A stretch of 64,000 nt of DNA from Longitalea luteola (GTDB taxonomy: Bacteria > Bacteroidota > Bacteroidia > Chitinophagales > Chitinophagaceae): assembly GCF_017356035.1 (NCBI RefSeq), contig NZ_JAFIQX010000002.1, positions 1 to 64,000 of the forward strand, given 5' to 3'. This document shows, piece by piece, positions 3,555-22,297 of the stretch. Position numbers and translations under genes: made by a program. The notes below the pieces were generated by a model that made no database searches, was not told the DNA's origin, and saw only the letters and a list, made by a program, of their open reading frames with translations. How positions within the stretch are numbered: the stretch's first letter is position 1; every line of letters starts with the position of its first letter.

Positions 3555-3628
3555 TCCTCCTTAGCTCAGTTGGTTAGAGCATCTGACTGTTAATCAGAGG
3601 GTCGCTGGTTCAAGTCCAGCAGGGGGAG
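3555..3628 (+). tRNA. tRNA-Asn (GUU), integration target
   Basis: Acceptor TCCTCCT pairs with AGGGGGA, anticodon stem TCTGA/TCAGA encloses loop CTGTTAA (anticodon GTT), and T stem CTGG/CCAG closes a TTCAAGT loop. CCA is not encoded. The 3' portion from the anticodon loop onward (3587-3629) is repeated at 22255-22297, so a mobile element integrated here and restored a complete tRNA. Confidence 0.95.
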
Positions 3629-3629
3629 C
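3587..3629. repeat. attL core (43 bp)
   Basis: It runs from the anticodon loop of tRNA-Asn to one base past the discriminator and is identical to 22255-22297. The flanking bases differ on both sides, which defines the ends. Confidence 0.93.
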
Positions 3630-10703: not shown

Positions 10704-11711
10704 TTACCTTTTGTGCTTTTGACTTTGCTTTTTCTTCCTGTTTACATACCCTTTATATGTAAACTCATAGGCTAATCCTTCATTGTGCTCTTCCGGTTTC
10801 AACAAGTCATCAACTACATTTTCTAACACCTTGGTTGTACCGCTTGAACCCTCCGGAGAGAGATTCTGATAGTTTTGACCAGGTACCCTTTTCTTTTTTT
10901 TTATGATTTTCTGGAAAACTTGTTTGGGATCTGTGGTCATTTTATTCTCTTCGACCTGACTATTTTTATTATTCAATTCTTCTATTTGTTGCTGGGCCAT
11001 AGCTTTCTGAAGCCCGGCATAAGAAAATTTCCGGTCAACCTGGCTGCCTTTGTAACAATATTTTCCAATCTTAAAACTAATTCCTTGCTTTTCATTTGTT
11101 TGACCTTTATACTTGTACTGAACCTCGATTCCCTGTTTAGATAACAGCATTTCTAAATCCTGCAGATTGCGGCAATGTGATAAGTTTTCAGCAATAGCTA
11201 TATAGATTTTATACCTGTTGGCCTCCGTTTCGTTAAGGTTTTCCAGGTGGGTTAAATCCAGGTTCTTTTTCAAAGCTGGAATTAATTTGTACTCTTCTGT
11301 GAGTTTCTGAGAAACCTTCTTTCCGCGTAGTCCCAGATAACTATCGCTGATTGATTTGCCATCGTTGTTGACCATGTTGGCAATAACATGCAGGTGAAGA
11401 TGAGCCTTATCGATGTGTTTAATAATTGAATACTGAGTATTTTTAATGCCCAGTCTGTCCAGGTATTTCTCTGCAATTTCCACCATCATTTCATCAGATG
11501 GTTTTTCACCTGGATAAAAACTAAGGATGCCGTGAAAACATGCTTTTTCTTTTGTAGGGCGCATTTGTTGCTGGATTAAAAAGTCATCAGCCATTAATTT
11601 GTAATCATGTCCTCTTACCCCTTCTGTAAATAAAACCTCCGCTTCAATCCGGTCACAAGCATATCGGCAGGTATGATAAAATGAACCGGATGGCACATGT
11701 TTACTTATCAT
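10704..11711 (-). CDS. mobB: relaxase / mobilization nuclease (MOBP-type)
   Basis: This 335-aa protein has the relaxase fold in its first ~200 residues. N-terminal tyrosines (Tyr12, Tyr17 in SFYHTCRY) are candidate nicking residues, and DKAHLHLHVIANMV (His104, His106, His108) is the metal-binding three-histidine motif. The C-terminal third is basic and low in complexity. It nicks at oriT and leads the strand into the recipient through a helper's secretion system. Its start overlaps the end of mobC by four bases (ATGA), so the two are translationally coupled. Confidence 0.9.
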   Translation of the reverse strand: MISKHVPSGSFYHTCRYACDRIEAEVLFTEGVRGHDYKLMADDFLIQQQMRPTKEKACFHGILSFYPGEKPSDEMMVEIAEKYLDRLGIKNTQYSIIKHIDKAHLHLHVIANMVNNDGKSISDSYLGLRGKKVSQKLTEEYKLIPALKKNLDLTHLENLNETEANRYKIYIAIAENLSHCRNLQDLEMLLSKQGIEVQYKYKGQTNEKQGISFKIGKYCYKGSQVDRKFSYAGLQKAMAQQQIEELNNKNSQVEENKMTTDPKQVFQKIIKKKKRVPGQNYQNLSPEGSSGTTKVLENVVDDLLKPEEHNEGLAYEFTYKGYVNRKKKQSQKHKR

Positions 11712-12252: not shown

Positions 12253-13194
12253 TCAAATTCTCCTACCTCGACGAATATTCTGATTTAAGCTGCGCAGTTC
12301 ATCTATCAGCCAATCATTTAAATCTTTATGGTTCTCATATATCTGGCTGCGGTCAATGTATTTTTTTATGTGCCAGGTTAATGCCTTGGCAGTATAATTT
12401 AAACCAGCAGAATCCCGGTCTAATAGCAGGTAAACTTCCCGGTGCGCTTCCATCAGATTTCTGGATTTTTCAAAAAAAGAAAGTGAATTAAGGATGAGAA
12501 AATTCGCTTGTGGCTGGATTTCCTTTTGACTTAATGTTTGAAATGCTAGGTAATTAAAGAACCCTTCAAATACGACGACTTGCTGTTTTCCGTTGTCAAT
12601 AAAAGTTATGTCTTTGGGTGAACTGCTACATTTATACTTCTCATTTCTAAGTTCAAATCCACCTGATTTATTTTGAAAACCGATAACAGTATGCTTCTTT
12701 TCATATAGTAAAAAGTCAACTTCCATGCAATATTCCCTTGCAACATCTAATGAAATACATCTTTTTTCCAAATAGTTAAGAAGCGCTTTTGAATTCAACG
12801 AGCAGGTGTCAAGCAACACAATTTTGCTTGTGTTAGGGTCTTTTTCTTCACCAGCACCGGAGGGTGCTGAAGGAAAAGAACTGCTGGAATCAGCAGGCGA
12901 ATGAAACGAAATAACCGGGCGACCAATAAAAGTCGATAGGCGTTGTAAGAGTTCTCTAATAGAACAATTGTGATAAATTACTCCAAAATCAATCAGGTCG
13001 CCACCCTTACCCAAACCATGATCGTACCATACATTTTTTTGCTGGTTTATCTTGAAAGAAGGCGTCTTTTCCTCCCGCAATGGTGACAAATACCAATAAT
13101 CTTGATTGTGTACTTTTTGGGGATGGTAATTTAATGAAGCCAGGTATGCCACCATATCGATCTGCTTCGCATCTTCACACGAAAACTGCCTCAT
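12253..13194 (-). CDS. Toprim-domain DNA primase of mobile element
   Basis: This 313-aa protein has an N-terminal CHC2-like module (YWYLSPLREEKTPSFKIN...GKGGDLIDF) whose zinc ligands are replaced, as in related element primases. A Toprim domain follows with VVVFEGFFNYLAF (Glu) and LLLDRDSAG (DxD). It probably primes replication of the transferred single strand or of the excised circle. Its start overlaps the preceding gene by four bases. Confidence 0.87.
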   Translation of the reverse strand: MRQFSCEDAKQIDMVAYLASLNYHPQKVHNQDYWYLSPLREEKTPSFKINQQKNVWYDHGLGKGGDLIDFGVIYHNCSIRELLQRLSTFIGRPVISFHSPADSSSSFPSAPSGAGEEKDPNTSKIVLLDTCSLNSKALLNYLEKRCISLDVAREYCMEVDFLLYEKKHTVIGFQNKSGGFELRNEKYKCSSSPKDITFIDNGKQQVVVFEGFFNYLAFQTLSQKEIQPQANFLILNSLSFFEKSRNLMEAHREVYLLLDRDSAGLNYTAKALTWHIKKYIDRSQIYENHKDLNDWLIDELRSLNQNIRRGRRI

Positions 13195-15252: not shown

Positions 15253-15723
15253 TTAAAGAAACGTAATTGGTAAATAATAAAACAAACGTTTCTTTTTATC
15301 GAAAGAAATGGCAATCATCTGTTCTTCCAAATTATTCGACGAAAAATCCAAAAATCCAACAATTAAAAATACTAACTCGCCATATTGCCATTCCATAGTC
15401 TGCTCTCCAATTGACATTAAATCTTGTTCACTTGGTAATGGATATTTCTGCGGGTGCGTATGCCATTCACCTACAAAAATGTTTAATCCAATTGACTTAT
15501 TGTACTCATTGTCAATGTATGTATGCATAAAATCTTTGTCCATTACAAATTCTACCTCTGTATGCATTGCCCTAGGCCCTGGACCGGATGCGGCTTCAAT
15601 AATAAGATGTTTGTCTTGATAGTGTCCACATAAAACACCACCCGTCTCTACCGTCTTAAATAGCGATATTTCATTAATTAAGTTTTGCTTTGCAGACGGT
15701 TGAATATAAATTCCTTGAATCAT
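15253..15723 (-). CDS. JAMM (MPN+) metallopeptidase of the ubiquitin-like system
   Basis: This 156-aa protein carries a complete JAMM zinc site: Glu26 (ETGG), His88-x-His90-x7-Ser98-x2-Asp101 in GEWHTHPQKYPLPSEQDL. Bacterial JAMM proteins of this size linked to E1/E2 genes cleave ubiquitin-like modifiers, either maturing the C-terminus or removing it from targets. It overlaps the E2-E1 gene by four bases, and E2-E1 overlaps the ubiquitin-like gene by four, so all three are one translation-coupled operon. Confidence 0.92.
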   Translation of the reverse strand: MIQGIYIQPSAKQNLINEISLFKTVETGGVLCGHYQDKHLIIEAASGPGPRAMHTEVEFVMDKDFMHTYIDNEYNKSIGLNIFVGEWHTHPQKYPLPSEQDLMSIGEQTMEWQYGELVFLIVGFLDFSSNNLEEQMIAISFDKKKRLFYYLPITFL

Positions 15724-17498
15724 TTCTTCAATTTACAAATAGCACATTTTACGGAAGCCTGGTATTTTTGAATTTCCCACTCAAATGGTTTGTGCTTTTT
15801 ATTATCTGTTTTAGAGTTGGCCCCAGCAGGACCATGCCAATAATATTGAAATCCCTGCATTTTCGGATAAAAAATATCTTCGTCTTGTAATAAAATTTGA
15901 ACTACCACTCTCGCTGTTTGCAGAGCAACTTCTCGAGTATCAAGTCCGCTGGCTGGCAAAGCGGGCTTAGAGCAAGCCCCATAATCCGCCGGGGCCTCTT
16001 TCAACGTTTCCGTTTCAAGTAAAGATACCGGTAGCTGATTAAGATTTTGAGATTTAAGGCATTCAAGACAAGATGACTTTCCAGGATAAAATACTAAAAC
16101 AATTCCAGTAAGGCCACCTTTAGAAACAGCCGATTGCACAAGAATTTTTCCTCTTTCATTGCATACCTTTTGATGAAGGTATTCTTCTACTAAGCGGTTA
16201 GCTGTCAGATCGAGCACAACATCTGATTCGTCAATTAAACCAGATAACAGATCAGCAGGAACTCGTAAGATGTTAACTGGAACTCTTTGAACATTTGCTT
16301 GAGGGTTTCGCCCTTGGATTATTTTCTTAGCAATATCAACTTTTAGTTCGCCCACCTGCATCAAATCTCCAGCATGCCGAACTGAATTGCCAACGTCAAA
16401 CCTTTCATCATCAATCACTACATAATAACCAATATTTGAGGCTGCCAATTCCTTGATTACCTCAGAACCAATAGCTCCAGACCCAATAACCAATATTCGT
16501 TTTTGAGCAAGTGATTCCAGATTAAAAAGAGCATCTATCCTGACAAACAGTTCCTGCGTAAGATTCTTGGGTAATAAGTAAGAACTCTGAAATTTAGTGA
16601 TTAGTCCTTCCTTCCAATAGAAAATTTGGAAACAATGCAGTTCTGGTGTCTGTCCAATGCGAAAACCAATAAGTATCCTTTTTGGAAAAACTTGTGGCTC
16701 AGGAAGAATATCGTTGATATTGACGTTAAGGCGCAATGCTAAAAAGTTCTTTAATCCTTCAGGTTGGGCCAGGGATGGCAATAAGTCTTTGGGCAACATG
16801 TCAACAACTCGATACCACCTTCCATGAATGAGTTCTTTTGTTGTTAATGAAAGCTCTGTATCGTCAGGGAAAGTATTGATTACCTTTGTACCTCCAAGTC
16901 CATTTAATTGCAGTTGAATAAGCGAATAATAATTTTCTTTTATAAGTTTACACGTTAACTGTCCACCATTTGCGTCCTCAAATTCGGCAGGGAAATAATA
17001 TAAAAGTTGCCCTGCATGTTGAATCACGGGGTTATTTTCATCCACAATTAAATTTGTTGTGAATCCTTTTTCAGAAGTTGCCGTCTCCAGCCATCTAACG
17101 GCTTGTTCCATCACCATGCCGATGGAATTATAAAAAGGAATCCATTCTTCTTCATCTCGAAAAAGACACATTCTACCATCGCTATATTGGTTACCCCGGT
17201 TGAAATTTTTCGGCACTAAAGCTTGTTGCATATTATTACCAACAATCTGTACACCTTGTTGTAACGGATAAACTTCAGGTGGGCTATATGGAAAGGAATG
17301 AGGAAAACCGACTTGTACGAGTTGTATTGCATTTACACCATAACTCAGCTCACCCAAAATAATAATCTGCTTACCATTTTGCTCGAGAGGTTTCTGATTT
17401 ATAAATTTAAAATACGAAAGGCCATGCTGCAAAGTTTCCAATTCTGCTCGGCACAATGCGGGCATGGCCTCGTACCAATGTTGACTGTCCCGCATCAC
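15720..17498 (-). CDS. E2-E1 fusion enzyme for ubiquitin-like conjugation
   Basis: This 592-aa protein has an E2-like UBC domain (residues ~1-145) with FPYSPPEVYP (69-78) and a candidate catalytic Cys111 in SDGRMCLF. A linker domain is followed by a ThiF/E1 adenylation domain (~330-540) with the ATP-binding GSGAIGSE (339-346) and IDDERFDVGNSVRH (362-375). Cys477/Cys480 (CLEC) and Cys585/Cys588 (CAIC) may form a zinc site, leaving Cys509 (YGACSKPALP) as the candidate E1 thioester cysteine. The layout is that of Cap2-like and Bub/Bil-related enzymes. With the adjacent modifier it should activate and attach that modifier to a target; no CD-NTase is encoded, so this is not CBASS. Confidence 0.92.
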   Translation of the reverse strand: MMRDSQHWYEAMPALCRAELETLQHGLSYFKFINQKPLEQNGKQIIILGELSYGVNAIQLVQVGFPHSFPYSPPEVYPLQQGVQIVGNNMQQALVPKNFNRGNQYSDGRMCLFRDEEEWIPFYNSIGMVMEQAVRWLETATSEKGFTTNLIVDENNPVIQHAGQLLYYFPAEFEDANGGQLTCKLIKENYYSLIQLQLNGLGGTKVINTFPDDTELSLTTKELIHGRWYRVVDMLPKDLLPSLAQPEGLKNFLALRLNVNINDILPEPQVFPKRILIGFRIGQTPELHCFQIFYWKEGLITKFQSSYLLPKNLTQELFVRIDALFNLESLAQKRILVIGSGAIGSEVIKELAASNIGYYVVIDDERFDVGNSVRHAGDLMQVGELKVDIAKKIIQGRNPQANVQRVPVNILRVPADLLSGLIDESDVVLDLTANRLVEEYLHQKVCNERGKILVQSAVSKGGLTGIVLVFYPGKSSCLECLKSQNLNQLPVSLLETETLKEAPADYGACSKPALPASGLDTREVALQTARVVVQILLQDEDIFYPKMQGFQYYWHGPAGANSKTDNKKHKPFEWEIQKYQASVKCAICKLKK

Positions 17499-17806
17499 GC
17501 AAATTTTTTTGGTTCATTTGGTTTAGGAGCGGCTTTTAGAAGGAAACGGACTGTCTCTTCATTACGTAGTCCAGCTTCTTCGATTGTCAACTTGTAATCA
17601 TTTAAAATTGTACCATCACCCCGAGTTAACTGTCGTTTGTCAAGATCTGATAAACCAAATGCTTCAGCAACTTTATTAATAATCACCTGAAGCTTTTGTT
17701 TAATTATGAACTCGTCTGAGAAGGTTTTGCCACCTTCAATCATTACATGAATGGTGATTTTTTGATCACCGTGTTGTGGCTGATTTGGCTTAAAAGTAGT
17801 GGCCAT
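17495..17806 (-). CDS. ubiquitin-like beta-grasp protein
   Basis: This 103-aa protein has a beta-grasp pattern: strand KITIHVMIEG, strand DEFIIK, helix LQVIINKVAEAFGL, then short strands around LTRGDGTILND and ETVRFLLKA. This matches ubiquitin-like modifiers found beside bacterial E1/E2/JAMM genes. The unusual point is the C-terminus, which ends ...PKPNEPKKFA with no Gly-Gly. Either Ala is the conjugated residue or the JAMM trims the tail. First gene of the operon, it overlaps the E2-E1 start by four bases. Confidence 0.85.
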   Translation of the reverse strand: MATTFKPNQPQHGDQKITIHVMIEGGKTFSDEFIIKQKLQVIINKVAEAFGLSDLDKRQLTRGDGTILNDYKLTIEEAGLRNEETVRFLLKAAPKPNEPKKFA

Positions 17807-18000: not shown

Positions 18001-18366
18001 ATGCTTCATAATGATCAGATAAGGCTGATTTACAACGCCCTGGGTTTAAGAATCAAGGAAGAAAGAGAAAAAGCGAATTATAAGCAAACTACCTTTGCAA
18101 GTCTTTTACAAATAAGTCGAGCCTCATTGGTAAATATTGAAAAAGGACGACAACGCGCTCCAATTCATGTTGTGTATGAAATTTCCCGCCTTTTAAAACT
18201 ACCCATTACTGATTTGCTGCCAGACCTCAATAAAATTATGGACACAGAAGTAAATAAAAGCATTCAACAGAAAATAGAAAAGAAAAGTGCTGGCAACCAA
18301 GATTTGCAACAAAAACTTATGGAGTTCGTTAAATCTCATACTAATCCAGTCAAAACAAGCATATGA
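18001..18366 (+). CDS. XRE-family regulator paired with ImmA/IrrE protease
   Basis: This 121-aa protein has an XRE HTH (residues ~14-70, TTFASLLQISRASLVNIEKGRQR) and a short C-terminal helical tail. XRE repressors coupled to ImmA/IrrE proteases are usually cleaved by the partner on DNA damage or another stress. The ATGA overlap with the next gene shows translational coupling. It lies divergent from the ubiquitin-like operon across 194 bp and is a good candidate regulator of it. Confidence 0.88.
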   Translation: MLHNDQIRLIYNALGLRIKEEREKANYKQTTFASLLQISRASLVNIEKGRQRAPIHVVYEISRLLKLPITDLLPDLNKIMDTEVNKSIQQKIEKKSAGNQDLQQKLMEFVKSHTNPVKTSI

Positions 18367-18911
18367 AACGGATTGAAAATCTGGTTAATGATCTCCTAGA
18401 TAGTTTAAATATTACTTCTGCGCCTGTACCTGTTCAAAAAATTGCGAAGGAATTAGGATTAACAATCATGGCATACGATCTTGGACCAGGTGTGTCTGGT
18501 GTTTTACTTTTAGACAACGAAAAAGCGATAATAGGAATCAATCCAAGTGAATCGAGGGAACGCACAAGGTTTACCATAGCACATGAAACTGGCCATTATT
18601 ACCTACATAAAACCTCAAATGATTTATTTGTAGATAGAGATGTATTATTTAGAGGTAAAGAATTGAATGGCACAAAAGTGCTTTTTAGAGACGGAAATTC
18701 ATCTTCTGGTGATTTGAAAATTGAAAGGGAAGCTAATGCTTTTGCAGCAGCGCTCTTAATGCCTGTAAAACTTTTGACAAAAGAGATTAATTCTCTAGAT
18801 CTCAACCTGTACAACCATGACGAAGAAATTATTCAGGAACTTGCGAAAAAATTTAAGGTAAGTACTATAGCGATGACTTACCGCTTAACTAATTTGGGTT
18901 TACTCGAATAA
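18363..18911 (+). CDS. ImmA/IrrE-type metallopeptidase
   Basis: This 182-aa protein has the zinc motif HETGH (His74-His78) in FTIAHETGHYYLH and the downstream Glu in KIEREANAFAAALLMP (~121-134), the standard ImmA/IrrE gluzincin arrangement. It should cleave the XRE repressor encoded by the overlapping upstream gene, turning on genes that repressor blocks. It ends 14 bases from the convergent reverse transcriptase gene. Confidence 0.92.
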   Translation: MKRIENLVNDLLDSLNITSAPVPVQKIAKELGLTIMAYDLGPGVSGVLLLDNEKAIIGINPSESRERTRFTIAHETGHYYLHKTSNDLFVDRDVLFRGKELNGTKVLFRDGNSSSGDLKIEREANAFAAALLMPVKLLTKEINSLDLNLYNHDEEIIQELAKKFKVSTIAMTYRLTNLGLLE

Positions 18912-18924
18912 TTTGCATGAACAA

Positions 18925-20418
18925 TTACCAGTTATCATAATACTTTGAATCTGGATTCATTACTCGATCAATACCTAAATTTTTAACCCCAAGCTGTAAC
19001 GCTAAATAAATTCTAAGAAAACTTGGAATTTGAAAAAGACCTTTTTTACCATTAACAGTTTTATTCTTAAACTCGTTTATAATATTGGTAGCAGTCACAT
19101 TAAATGGGAAAAAACTTGTCGGATAATGCAAGGACTGAAGGATTTTTTGTCTCTTCCTTAACGTATTAAGGATCGTAGATACAAGCCACTTATCTAATTC
19201 TTTCATTTGGCTTTCATCATTTACCAAAGGATAGAAACTCATTATACCTTTGAAATTAAGTTTTACATAAGTACCATTAAGATATTTTTTTAACGTTTGT
19301 TCTGAAAGATTACCATATAAAAACCTTCTTATCTCAGATATTGTGGTCAATAAGTCAGCATCTTTGGCCGGTGTAGGAAAACGAGCTGCCTTTATTGGAT
19401 TGCTTTTAATTGGATGCAGCAAGTTTTTGTATAATAAGTAGGAAATTTGCTTTTTAATGTTCAAAACGGAACTCTTTCTAATTCCAATATTCTCTACTGA
19501 AATTCGATACCCTAAAAACTCCACATAGCTCTTCGGAAAAGCAAACTCCGAACGCATCCCCTTCTTTTGAAGAAGACTTATTCCGTCAGACTTCTCATAG
19601 TTTATTTGGATACCGGCAGACTTCGAAAATTCGTTAATTATTTCGAATGCCTTACATATTTTTGAATAGTCCTTTGTCCAAATTATTGTATCATCCGCAT
19701 ACCTAGCAAATCTAAGACCTTCGTCTTCCAATTTCCTATCGAGTTGCCAACAAGCTACGTTAGCAAGGAAAAGAGAGATTGAGGTTCCCAATGGAATGCC
19801 AACATCACTTTTCTTGAGAAAAGAATTTATAATATATTCTTCGGTTGCACTTATCAAAAAACAATTTTCCTTTAACTGACGACTAATATAACTGTGATCT
19901 ATTGATCCAAAAAAATTACTAAAATCAAACTCAGCTATAAATATTCGAGATGTCTTACTCAATTCATTTGAGATATCCTGAATAGCAAAATGAACATTTC
20001 GATCATTCCTATAAGCATAAGCAAACGAACTAAACCGATGTTTATTCTTTTTCAATAAGTCATGATAAAACTTATCTGAAACAGCAGAATCAGGAAGCTG
20101 GTACACTGAAATAGTTCTATTCCCTCCACTTTTTTTCGGAATACTTTTTTCATACGGTGCTTCAGGAAAGTAAGTTTTTGATTTTATTTTATCTGAAATT
20201 GATGATGCAATTTTTTCAGCATGTTTTAATACATAAAAGGGGTTATGCTTTTTATTATGCTTCCATTCATTGGGAACTTTAATCTCCTTAGGTGGCACGT
20301 TAGTGAGCCTTGAAGACTTTCTGTTATGATCTATATTCAAATAGTTATGATACAAATGATATTTTTCTGCACTTTTTTCTGCTTCCTCAATTATCGCATC
20401 AAGAATGGCTTTTTTCAT
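18925..20418 (-). CDS. reverse transcriptase, defence-associated (DRT/UG-like)
   Basis: This 497-aa protein (from ATG 20418; an in-frame start 17 codons upstream would lie within the terminator hairpin) has an RT core: GGNRTISVY (98-106), FDFSNFF with catalytic Asp165, GIPLGTSISLFLAN (207-220) and YADD (240-243). No maturase X/HNH domain is recognisable and no group II intron structure is seen, so it is not an ordinary intron RT. About 250 C-terminal residues form a helical extension, as in UG/DRT anti-phage RTs. I cannot assign a DRT class. A hairpin-rich transcript candidate lies immediately upstream on the same strand, the arrangement used by DRT systems whose RT copies a cognate ncRNA. 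Confidence 0.88.
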   Translation of the reverse strand: MKKAILDAIIEEAEKSAEKYHLYHNYLNIDHNRKSSRLTNVPPKEIKVPNEWKHNKKHNPFYVLKHAEKIASSISDKIKSKTYFPEAPYEKSIPKKSGGNRTISVYQLPDSAVSDKFYHDLLKKNKHRFSSFAYAYRNDRNVHFAIQDISNELSKTSRIFIAEFDFSNFFGSIDHSYISRQLKENCFLISATEEYIINSFLKKSDVGIPLGTSISLFLANVACWQLDRKLEDEGLRFARYADDTIIWTKDYSKICKAFEIINEFSKSAGIQINYEKSDGISLLQKKGMRSEFAFPKSYVEFLGYRISVENIGIRKSSVLNIKKQISYLLYKNLLHPIKSNPIKAARFPTPAKDADLLTTISEIRRFLYGNLSEQTLKKYLNGTYVKLNFKGIMSFYPLVNDESQMKELDKWLVSTILNTLRKRQKILQSLHYPTSFFPFNVTATNIINEFKNKTVNGKKGLFQIPSFLRIYLALQLGVKNLGIDRVMNPDSKYYDNW

Positions 20419-20437
20419 ACATAAAAAAGTTGAATAC

Positions 20438-20584
20438 AAAAAATCCCTACTTGCGTAGGGATTTCCCACGGAATTACTATGTAAAAGTAAATTTCAAATT
20501 GAGCACAATTTGTAGCAAATTATGCTACCAATCTCAGGCTTTTTTATTACCCAAGGTCAGCAAGTCCGTTCGTCCCCAAAGGAC
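20438..20584 (-). ncRNA. candidate template/structural ncRNA of the reverse transcriptase
   Basis: On the minus strand, five hairpins occur in sequence: GTCC/GGAC (20584-20572), GTAGCA/TGCTAC (20528-20512), CAAATTG/CAATTTG (20512-20495), TTACT/AGTAA (20490-20474) and a 10-bp AAATCCCTAC/GTAGGGATTT stem (20464-20441) running into TTTTTT. A TATATTTG promoter box lies seven bases upstream of the predicted 5' end. The RT start codon is 20 bases past the terminator. This gives a discrete ~147-nt RNA, similar in position and size to known DRT ncRNAs. Expression and function are inferred. Confidence 0.65.
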
Positions 20585-20590
20585 ATAAGT

Positions 20591-20598
20591 CAAATATA
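20591..20598 (-). promoter_or_regulatory. -7 promoter element of the candidate ncRNA
   Basis: The minus strand reads TATATTTG, an exact TAnnTTTG match, in the gap between the integrase and the RT. The -33 region is T-rich without a clear TTTG. Confidence 0.55.
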
Positions 20599-20694: not shown

Positions 20695-22065
20695 TTATTG
20701 CCCATGAACTTGGTCATCTCTTGCTGCATTCTTAAACGCCACCAGCTTCTGTGAATACTCCTTCTTCACCGTCTTCTCAAAACTGTCCAGGTAGTTTTCA
20801 GTCGTCTTGATACTTGTATGCCCTAATGATTCCTGAATAAACTCAGTACTTACCCCTGACCGTTTCATAATGGTTGAGAATGTATGACGGGCTACGTAGG
20901 TGGTTACTGCTTTTTCAATTCCAAGCTTTTTTTTGATCTTACGCATCCAGTCATTGAGAGCCTGAACAAACAATTCTATCAATTCAACCTGGCGCAATGG
21001 GGTTATGTCGTGTTGCAGGACAGGGAATATATAATTACCAGGGCGCTTATCCTTGGTGCTCCAGAAATCAATAACCTGCTGCATATCTTCTGTTATGTAA
21101 ACAGTTATTGGCCGGGGAGAGGATCGGGTTGAGTTTTCCGTTTTAGCCCGTTCAAATACAAGATATTCTCCTTCAATATTCTTATATTTTAAATGGGCTA
21201 TGTCAGTGGGATTGATACCATTGGCGAAGTAGGAGAAGAGCCAGAAATCCTTTGCCTTCCGTTCTTCCAGGCAAACCGGTTCATAATAATAGATCTTGCC
21301 AACGTCTTCCAGGGTCAAAGCCTTTTTTATGTTCCGGGATGTGGGTGGCTGATACTTTCGCCTGCCGAAAGGGTAACATTTATCTCTATTAATAATACCC
21401 TGGAATATGGCTTCATTAAACATGGTGCGCAGTCACCGGGTATAAATACCAACTGTTGTTTTGGAATATTCCTGATCCATCATCCAGGCTTCCAACTGCT
21501 TTAGGAACGCCACGTCAATTTCAGTAAATCGAACATTACCGCGAAAACGGGAAATAGTTGTATAGGTTGTCTGATAATTGGCCGCCGTTCGGATACGGTG
21601 TTCGGAAAGCAGCTTATTAATATAATATAGAAAGGTGGCCAGTATTGTTCCATGCTCTGGCGTTGGCAACTTGAAAATGGGAAACCGGTTTTCGTACTCA
21701 GCCAAATTAAATTCGTAGGTCACCGGGACCAGGTTTGCCTTCAGAGACTTTCGCTGGTGAAAAAGAGGATTATTTAGGATAAAGTCCCTCTCAAACTCAT
21801 CGTAGGTGAACGGCTGTAATAAACGGGCCTTATCCTCCGCATTCCGCTCGATCAGCTTTAGGTTGGTACGGATTTCCTTTAATTTTTCGGAAATATTTCG
21901 CGCCTTCCGGTCTGTTACGGTATTAAATTCCTCCTGGGTAAGATCATAAACGGTTTGGTAACGCTTCGGCTCGCTGTTCAAGGTCACCAATAGCTTAACA
22001 GGATAAGTTCCTTTCTTCTTTTTTAGTCTCCGAGTGTCTAAAATGACTTTTACTGATGCTGACAT
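20695..22065 (-). pseudogene. int: tyrosine integrase interrupted by an in-frame TGA
   Basis: One frame from ATG 22065 to 20695 encodes a phage-integrase-like tyrosine recombinase of normal size (~456 codons), but codon 21435-21433 is TGA (…GIYTR-stop-LRTMFNEAI…). The N-terminal part holds the arm-binding and SAM-like core-binding domains. The C-terminal part keeps the ARHTFST Arg, LGHTSIKTTENYL His/Tyr and a RAKT Lys. The first catalytic Arg position reads NGIN. A downstream ATG (21423) could express the catalytic half alone. A point mutation or base-call error is most likely; if real, the element may be immobile without a helper integrase. Confidence 0.85.
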
Positions 22066-22106
22066 ACCTATTAATTTTTCAGTTTCACAAAATCCTTCGC
22101 CCAAAA

Positions 22107-22125
22107 TTTGCCAGTAATTTGCCAG
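22107..22125 (+). repeat. right subterminal repeat, candidate integrase arm site
   Basis: It is identical to 3676-3694 (TTTGCCAGTAATTTGCCAG). It lies 42 bp upstream of the integrase start and 130 bp inside attR, so integrase binding here could also repress its own promoter. Confidence 0.7.
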
Positions 22126-22254
22126 TAAAACAGGGTTAAACCCCATTTTGAAAGGCATACATCAAATTTCCAACAAAGAATTAAGTGATTGAAAAATAAA
22201 CAGTTAAGTAAGTTTCAGTCAACCCCGATTAAGCCAGATTAGCGGCTGATCGCG

Positions 22255-22297
22255 CTGTTAATCAGAGGGTCGCTGGTTCAAGTCCAGCAGGGGGAGC
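22255..22297. repeat. attR core (43 bp)
   Basis: This is a partial copy of tRNA-Asn from the anticodon loop to one base past the 3' end, identical to attL. It has no 5' half and is not a functional tRNA. Confidence 0.93.

What the first reader, a model, noticed from the sequence alone, without database searches (positions are those of the whole stretch)
20438..20598. Unannotated structured RNA locus directly upstream of a defence-type reverse transcriptase
On the minus strand, a TATATTTG promoter box, five consecutive hairpins and a 10-bp terminator stem with TTTTTT define a ~147-nt RNA ending 20 nt before the RT start codon. DRT-class anti-phage RTs are known to copy a cognate ncRNA encoded immediately upstream; the geometry here matches, and the integrase/RT gap is otherwise unexplained. 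The exact RT class and the template region are unknown.
Basis: partly seen in the sequence, partly recalled or inferred. Interest (0 to 1): 0.9.

Follow-up and report, generated by a model that had tools for sequence, protein, structure and literature searches.

The report
DRT9 anti-phage system with template RNA
The structured RNA just upstream of this reverse transcriptase is the partner RNA of a DRT9 anti-phage system, a recently described kind that copies a short run of U's into long toxic poly-A DNA; this is a new, well-preserved example of a known system rather than a new kind.

Summary
The protein at 18925-20418(-) is a full-length DRT9 (UG28) reverse transcriptase: PADLOC Drt9 682 bits, next model 106; 53% identical to an E. 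coli DRT9 RT, and matched by solved DRT9 structures. The RNA at 20437-20584(-) is the cognate DRT9 ncRNA. A covariance model built from four relatives, window left out, finds this stretch and nothing else in the window (41.4 bits, E=4e-6) or in the 7.3-Mb genome. Among those relatives 9 of 18 modelled pairs change on both sides (0/500 shuffles). The "unknown" template can be named: U4 at 20483-20486(-), in AUUUACUUUUACAU, matching the proven U4 template of Salmonella and E. coli DRT9. A TAnnTTTG promoter-type box precedes the RNA here and in two relatives. Predicted product: RT-linked poly-dA causing abortive infection (inferred). Local differences: a shorter RNA, one of two published priming tyrosines replaced with an extra one adjacent, and no ExoI (the known E. 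coli silencer) found in this genome. New member of a known kind.

The parts
18925..20418 (-). DRT9 (UG28) reverse transcriptase, 497 aa, YADD at residues 240-243, C-terminus ...MNPDSKYYDNW
   Evidence: PADLOC Drt9 682 bits over residues 1-494; phmmer to 9ioa E=1.3e-167; 53% identity to the E. coli DRT9 RT; C-terminus and YADD
20437..20584 (-). DRT9 ncRNA core, 148 nt (true 5' end probably near 20584-20590, inferred from the -7 box)
   Evidence: only hit of leave-window-out covariance model R1 in the window, E=4.1e-6, and in the genome
20591..20598 (-). TATATTTG, Bacteroidota-type -7 promoter box
   Evidence: TAnnTTTG just upstream of the RNA also in L009 (TATATTTG) and Hymenobacter L004 (TATGTTTG)
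20572..20584 (-). SL1 hairpin GUCCU-UUG-GGGAC
   Evidence: 5 pairs, 3 with changes on both sides among relatives, all cells paired
20562..20569 (-). 5' strand of closing helix P1 (ACGGACTT)
   Evidence: pairs with 20468-20475, 7 of 8 standard pairs in the window; covaries across relatives
20533..20555 (-). predicted inner hairpin (CUUGGGU...GCCUGAG)
   Evidence: thermodynamic prediction only
20502..20526 (-). predicted inner hairpin (AGCAUAAUUUG-CUA-CAAAUUGUGCU)
   Evidence: thermodynamic prediction only
20483..20486 (-). U4 template tract in AUUUACUUUUACAU
   Evidence: coordinates; block YUUA(C/A)UUUUA(C/A) in all five core loci; corresponds to U123-126 of SenDRT9 (PMC12483538) and U124-127 of EcoDRT9 (PMC12489045)
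20468..20475 (-). 3' strand of closing helix P1 (AATTCCGT), followed by GG
20438..20464 (-). 3' hairpin / intrinsic terminator with T run
   Evidence: outer pairs covary among relatives

Best explanation
The locus is a DRT9 anti-phage system. Shown here by sequence: a UG28 reverse transcriptase and, directly upstream on the same strand, its structured ncRNA with a promoter-type box, SL1, a closing helix, a U4 template loop and a 3' hairpin. Inferred from work on Salmonella and E. coli DRT9: the ncRNA folds around the RT and drives its assembly into oligomers. On phage infection the RT primes DNA synthesis on a C-terminal tyrosine, copies the U4 tract repeatedly by realigning on it, and makes kilobase poly-dA attached to itself. 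Accumulation of that DNA stops or kills the cell (abortive infection).
For: RT class with a very large margin and full-length match to the RT of solved DRT9 structures. A leave-window-out covariance model finds exactly this stretch, alone in the window and in the genome, and has no hit in 60 other genomes of the family at E<=0.01. Covariation on four relatives without the window: 9 of 18 pairs with both-side changes, 0/500 shuffles, signal collapses when partners are slid by 1-3 columns; with the window 10 of 18. Template context conserved. Invariant C-terminal tyrosine Y494. Same gene order integrase - ncRNA - RT in E. coli. Mechanism: PMC12483538 and PMC12489045.
Against: No expression or activity data. 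The second priming tyrosine of SenDRT9 (Y498) is N in the window. The RNA core is about 24 nt shorter than the E. coli RNA over the same limits, so the hairpins used for loop-loop contacts in the hexamer (SL4, SL5, SL5.1) are not clearly recognisable. P1 has one C-U mismatch in the window. The window scores much lower on the model (41 bits) than the model's own members (103-147).
Confidence: 0.94

Rival explanations
1. A DRT9-family system that does not make pure poly-dA: a short tandem repeat or A-rich product is copied from the wider loop (DRT10/telomerase-like repeat addition).
For: The U4 sits in UUUAC-UUUUAC, a near-repeat; DRT10 (UG17) uses an A-B-A' pattern in a related ncRNA (PMC12632851).
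Against: The same UUAC-UUUUAC context occurs in the E. coli relative of the proven poly-dA systems; the RT scores 99 bits to UG17 against 682 to Drt9; no SLATT gene among the neighbours examined.
Confidence: 0.04
2. A degraded, inactive DRT9 remnant inside an immobilised island.
For: The neighbouring integrase carries an in-frame stop, and one of the two published priming tyrosines is missing.
Against: The RT frame is full length with an intact YADD, and the ncRNA keeps its promoter-type box, paired helices and template; a divergent relative, G224, also ends in a YY pair.
Confidence: 0.04
3. The hairpins are only an integrase terminator or an RT leader attenuator, not a template RNA; or the RT is a group II intron or retron RT.
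For: The 3' hairpin with its T run is a good intrinsic terminator.
Against: Covariance model match over the whole 148 nt including the template block; no intron RNA in the Rfam scan; intron and retron RT models score far below their cut-offs.
Confidence: 0.01

Closest known systems
DRT9 (UG28) of Salmonella enterica (SenDRT9) and E. coli (PDB 9ioa, 9iob, 9nlv, 9nlx, 9vku, 9vma)
   Same: RT full length, 53% identical to the E. coli protein; ncRNA directly upstream; SL1, closing helix, U4 template in the same context, 3' hairpin; one C-terminal tyrosine aligned to Y496
   Different: ncRNA core 148 nt against 172 nt in the E. coli relative over the same limits; C-terminus KYYDNW instead of NYDYE; ExoI not found in the host genome; different inner hairpins
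DRT9 of Hymenobacter sp. BRD67 plasmid (L004) and IMG/VR contig L009
   Same: TAnnTTTG box, SL1, P1, UUUU template, 3' hairpin; HTH and M78 peptidase gene(s) next door
   Different: inner hairpins differ in length and sequence; both RTs end in YxY
DRT10 (UG17)
   Same: protein-primed RT with a template loop in an associated ncRNA, repetitive synthesis (PMC12632851)
   Different: needs a SLATT partner and an A-B-A' template; the window RT scores 99 bits on that class against 682 on Drt9
DRT2 (UG2)
   Same: RT with an upstream template ncRNA
   Different: about 280-nt ncRNA of which about 120 nt is copied into a gene; the window RT scores 64 bits on that class

Membership tests
DRT9 | RT belongs to class UG28 | tested here: met
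   PADLOC Drt9 682 bits, full length; next best 106 bits
DRT9 | catalytic YxDD and the full DRT9 RT length with N- and C-terminal extensions | tested here: met
   YADD at 240-243; alignment over residues 5-495 of 497 to 9ioa
DRT9 | structured ncRNA directly upstream on the same strand | tested here: met
   leave-window-out covariance hit 20437-20584(-), E=4.1e-6
DRT9 | conserved poly-U template tract in a loop before the 3' closing strand | tested here: met
   U4 at 20483-20486 in AUUUACUUUUACAU; templating itself not testable
DRT9 | two C-terminal priming tyrosines (Y496, Y498 in SenDRT9) | tested here: inconclusive
   Y494 aligns with Y496 and is invariant; the Y498 position is N, but an extra Y493 is adjacent
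DRT9 | poly-dA synthesis, hexamer formation, phage defence | not testable with these tools
   needs biochemistry and plaque assays
DRT10 (UG17) | UG17 RT with SLATT partner | tested here: not met
   UG17 99 bits against Drt9 682; no SLATT gene among the neighbours examined
DRT2 (UG2) | UG2 RT and about 280-nt ncRNA | tested here: not met
   Drt2 64 bits, NCBIfam Drt2 63.7 against cut-off 390; RNA core 148 nt
Group II intron | intron RNA around the RT and a maturase-level score | tested here: not met
   no intron RNA in Rfam scan; group_II_RT_mat 131 against cut-off 300
Retron | retron RT class | tested here: not met
   best retron model 63.6 against cut-off 235

The most novel reading that the evidence does not exclude
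A Bacteroidota branch of DRT9 that works with a reduced ncRNA and altered priming tyrosines in a host without ExoI, so that poly-dA must be held in check by another nuclease, or by the neighbouring HTH-M78 (CapH/CapP-like) regulators, rather than by the mechanism known from E. coli.
Probability: 0.25. Interest if true: 0.5.

Novelty: new member of a known kind. Interest (0 to 1): 0.33.

Why it matters
It places a complete DRT9 system, with the RNA and its template located to the base, in a genome from a group far from the Salmonella and E. coli systems studied so far. No Rfam family covers the DRT9 ncRNA, not even in the E. coli relative, so such RNAs go unannotated. The absence of a recognisable ExoI in the host raises a testable question: what keeps poly-dA low in uninfected cells outside the enterobacteria.

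Tried and rejected
Searches with the RT gave few relatives: DRT9 is rare, found in 2 of 299 genomes of the family, the window's own included (E<=1e-30), and only in the window's own genome among 396 of the phylum (E<=1e-60). A DNA pattern GGGGACGAACGG...CCGTGG in viral contigs gave 25 stretches, none with a DRT9 RT. Plain MAFFT alignment misplaces the inner hairpins, so only SL1, P1 and the outer part of the 3' hairpin were scored for covariation. The model does not detect RNAs at the two divergent DRT9 RT loci L003 and L005, so it covers the core branch only. Intron, retron, DRT2 and DRT10 placements were considered and rejected on score. No structure prediction was run, because solved DRT9 structures already match the RT over its full length.

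Full report
What is there. On the minus strand, between a tyrosine integrase (20695-22158) and a reverse transcriptase gene (18925-20418), lies a 148-nt structured RNA core at 20437-20584, preceded by TATATTTG at 20591-20598 and ending in a terminator hairpin with a T run, 19 nt before the RT start codon. The folding energy of the stretch is below that of all 200 dinucleotide shuffles, z -3.67.

The RT. The 497-aa protein matches PADLOC Drt9 with 682 bits over its whole length; the next model scores 106. The only close solved relative is the DRT9 RT of entries 9ioa, 9iob, 9nlv, 9nlx, 9vku and 9vma (E 1.3e-167), aligned over residues 5-495. It is 53% identical to a DRT9 RT found in two E. coli genomes, 48% to one on a Hymenobacter plasmid, and 48% to two IMG/VR contig proteins. 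Intron, retron and DRT2 models score well below their curated cut-offs.

The RNA. Upstream regions of four relatives (E. coli L006, IMG/VR L008, Hymenobacter L004, IMG/VR L009) were aligned without the window (one N was put in the E. coli row as a spacer), and a covariance model was built with three helices: SL1, the closing helix P1 and the outer 3' hairpin. In those four sequences 93% of cells pair, 9 of 18 pairs have changes on both sides, none of 500 shuffles reaches these values, and sliding the partners by 1-3 columns destroys the signal. The model, which has not seen the window, finds 20437-20584(-) as its only match in 64 kb (41.4 bits, E=4.1e-6) and in the 7.3-Mb genome (E=4.7e-4), and nothing in 60 other genomes of the family at E<=0.01. 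With the window added, 10 of 18 pairs have both-side changes (this alignment is fitted to the model, so it leans towards it). Caveat: four or five sequences is a small set, two of them (E. coli and L008) close to each other, and the structure was drawn partly from these same sequences.

The template. In all five sequences a block YUUA(C/A)UUUUA(C/A) lies just before the 3' strand of P1. In SenDRT9, U123-U126 of this block template poly-dA: changing U4 to A4 turns the main product into poly-dT, and deletion of U124 abolishes defence (PMC12483538). In EcoDRT9 the corresponding bases (U124-U127) lie near the active site, and replacing them abolishes defence (PMC12489045). In the window they are 20483-20486.

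Priming residue. SenDRT9 primes from Y496 and/or Y498 in the tail ...NYDYE (PMC12483538). The window tail is ...KYYDNW: Y494 aligns with Y496 and is invariant in the relatives aligned, while the Y498 position is N and there is an extra tyrosine just before. Of the seven loci compared, four end in YxY, the window and G224 have YY, and Thioclava has a single tyrosine. Priming from Y494 (or Y493) in the window is inferred.

Promoter and host. TAnnTTTG boxes stand just upstream of the RNA in L009, Hymenobacter and the window. That this is the Bacteroidota -7 consensus is general knowledge, not tested here. In E. coli, ExoI degrades poly-dA and so silences DRT9 until a phage protein blocks it (PMC12483538). 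The window's genome has no match to the ExoI C-terminal family PF08411, while the E. coli control does. How the product is held low here is open.

Setting. The system lies in an island bounded by an identical copy of the tRNA-Asn 3' end (at least 39 bp, 3591-3629 and 22259-22297), with a MobA-type relaxase, an E1/E2-JAB ubiquitin-like operon and an HTH + M78 peptidase pair. The E. coli relative also has an integrase directly upstream of its ncRNA and RT.

Verdict. A DRT9 system with its ncRNA; confidence 0.94 for identity. The biochemical steps (poly-dA, oligomer, abortive infection) are inferred from the studied relatives. It is a new member of a known kind, with modest variations worth testing.

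Noticed in passing
window 3591-3629 and 22259-22297: Identical repeats of the tRNA-Asn 3' end (at least 39 bp) bound an island of about 18.7 kb that carries the DRT9 system, a MobA-type relaxase gene (10704-11711) and a toprim primase-like gene (12253-13194).
   Followed up: partly
window 20695-22158 (-): The tyrosine integrase is split by one in-frame stop into 21433-22158 and 20695-21423; the island is probably immobile unless this is a sequencing error.
   Followed up: partly
window 15253-17806 (-): An operon of a candidate ubiquitin-like protein, an E1/E2-like ThiF protein and a JAB peptidase: a second defence-type system (bacterial ubiquitin-like conjugation) close to DRT9.
   Followed up: no
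window 18001-18911 (+); L004 2356-3097; L009 4906-6102: HTH + M78 (ImmA/IrrE; CapH/CapP-like or RmrA-like) genes neighbour DRT9 in three of the seven loci compared; possibly a regulator, possibly just defence-island clustering.
   Followed up: partly
L005 3713-3853 (Thioclava plasmid, DRT9-class RT with SLATT gene): The upstream stretch has a 10-bp closing helix, but the expected template position reads AACUUAGAUUAUCUACC without a U4 tract, which would depart from the 'universally conserved' poly-U of published DRT9 RNAs.
   Followed up: partly
L041 8707-11015 (G224, same family as the window): A divergent DRT9 RT (FSDD instead of YADD, tail PEYY) with a U5 tract in ACUUUUUACUU upstream and a Csx27-like membrane protein gene just before it (PADLOC 27.7 bits).
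   Followed up: partly
L006 3566-3616: The 3' end of the E. coli DRT9 ncRNA gives a sub-threshold Rfam match to Salmonella sRNA STnc390 (26.8 bits, cut-off 50); probably only the terminator.
   Followed up: no
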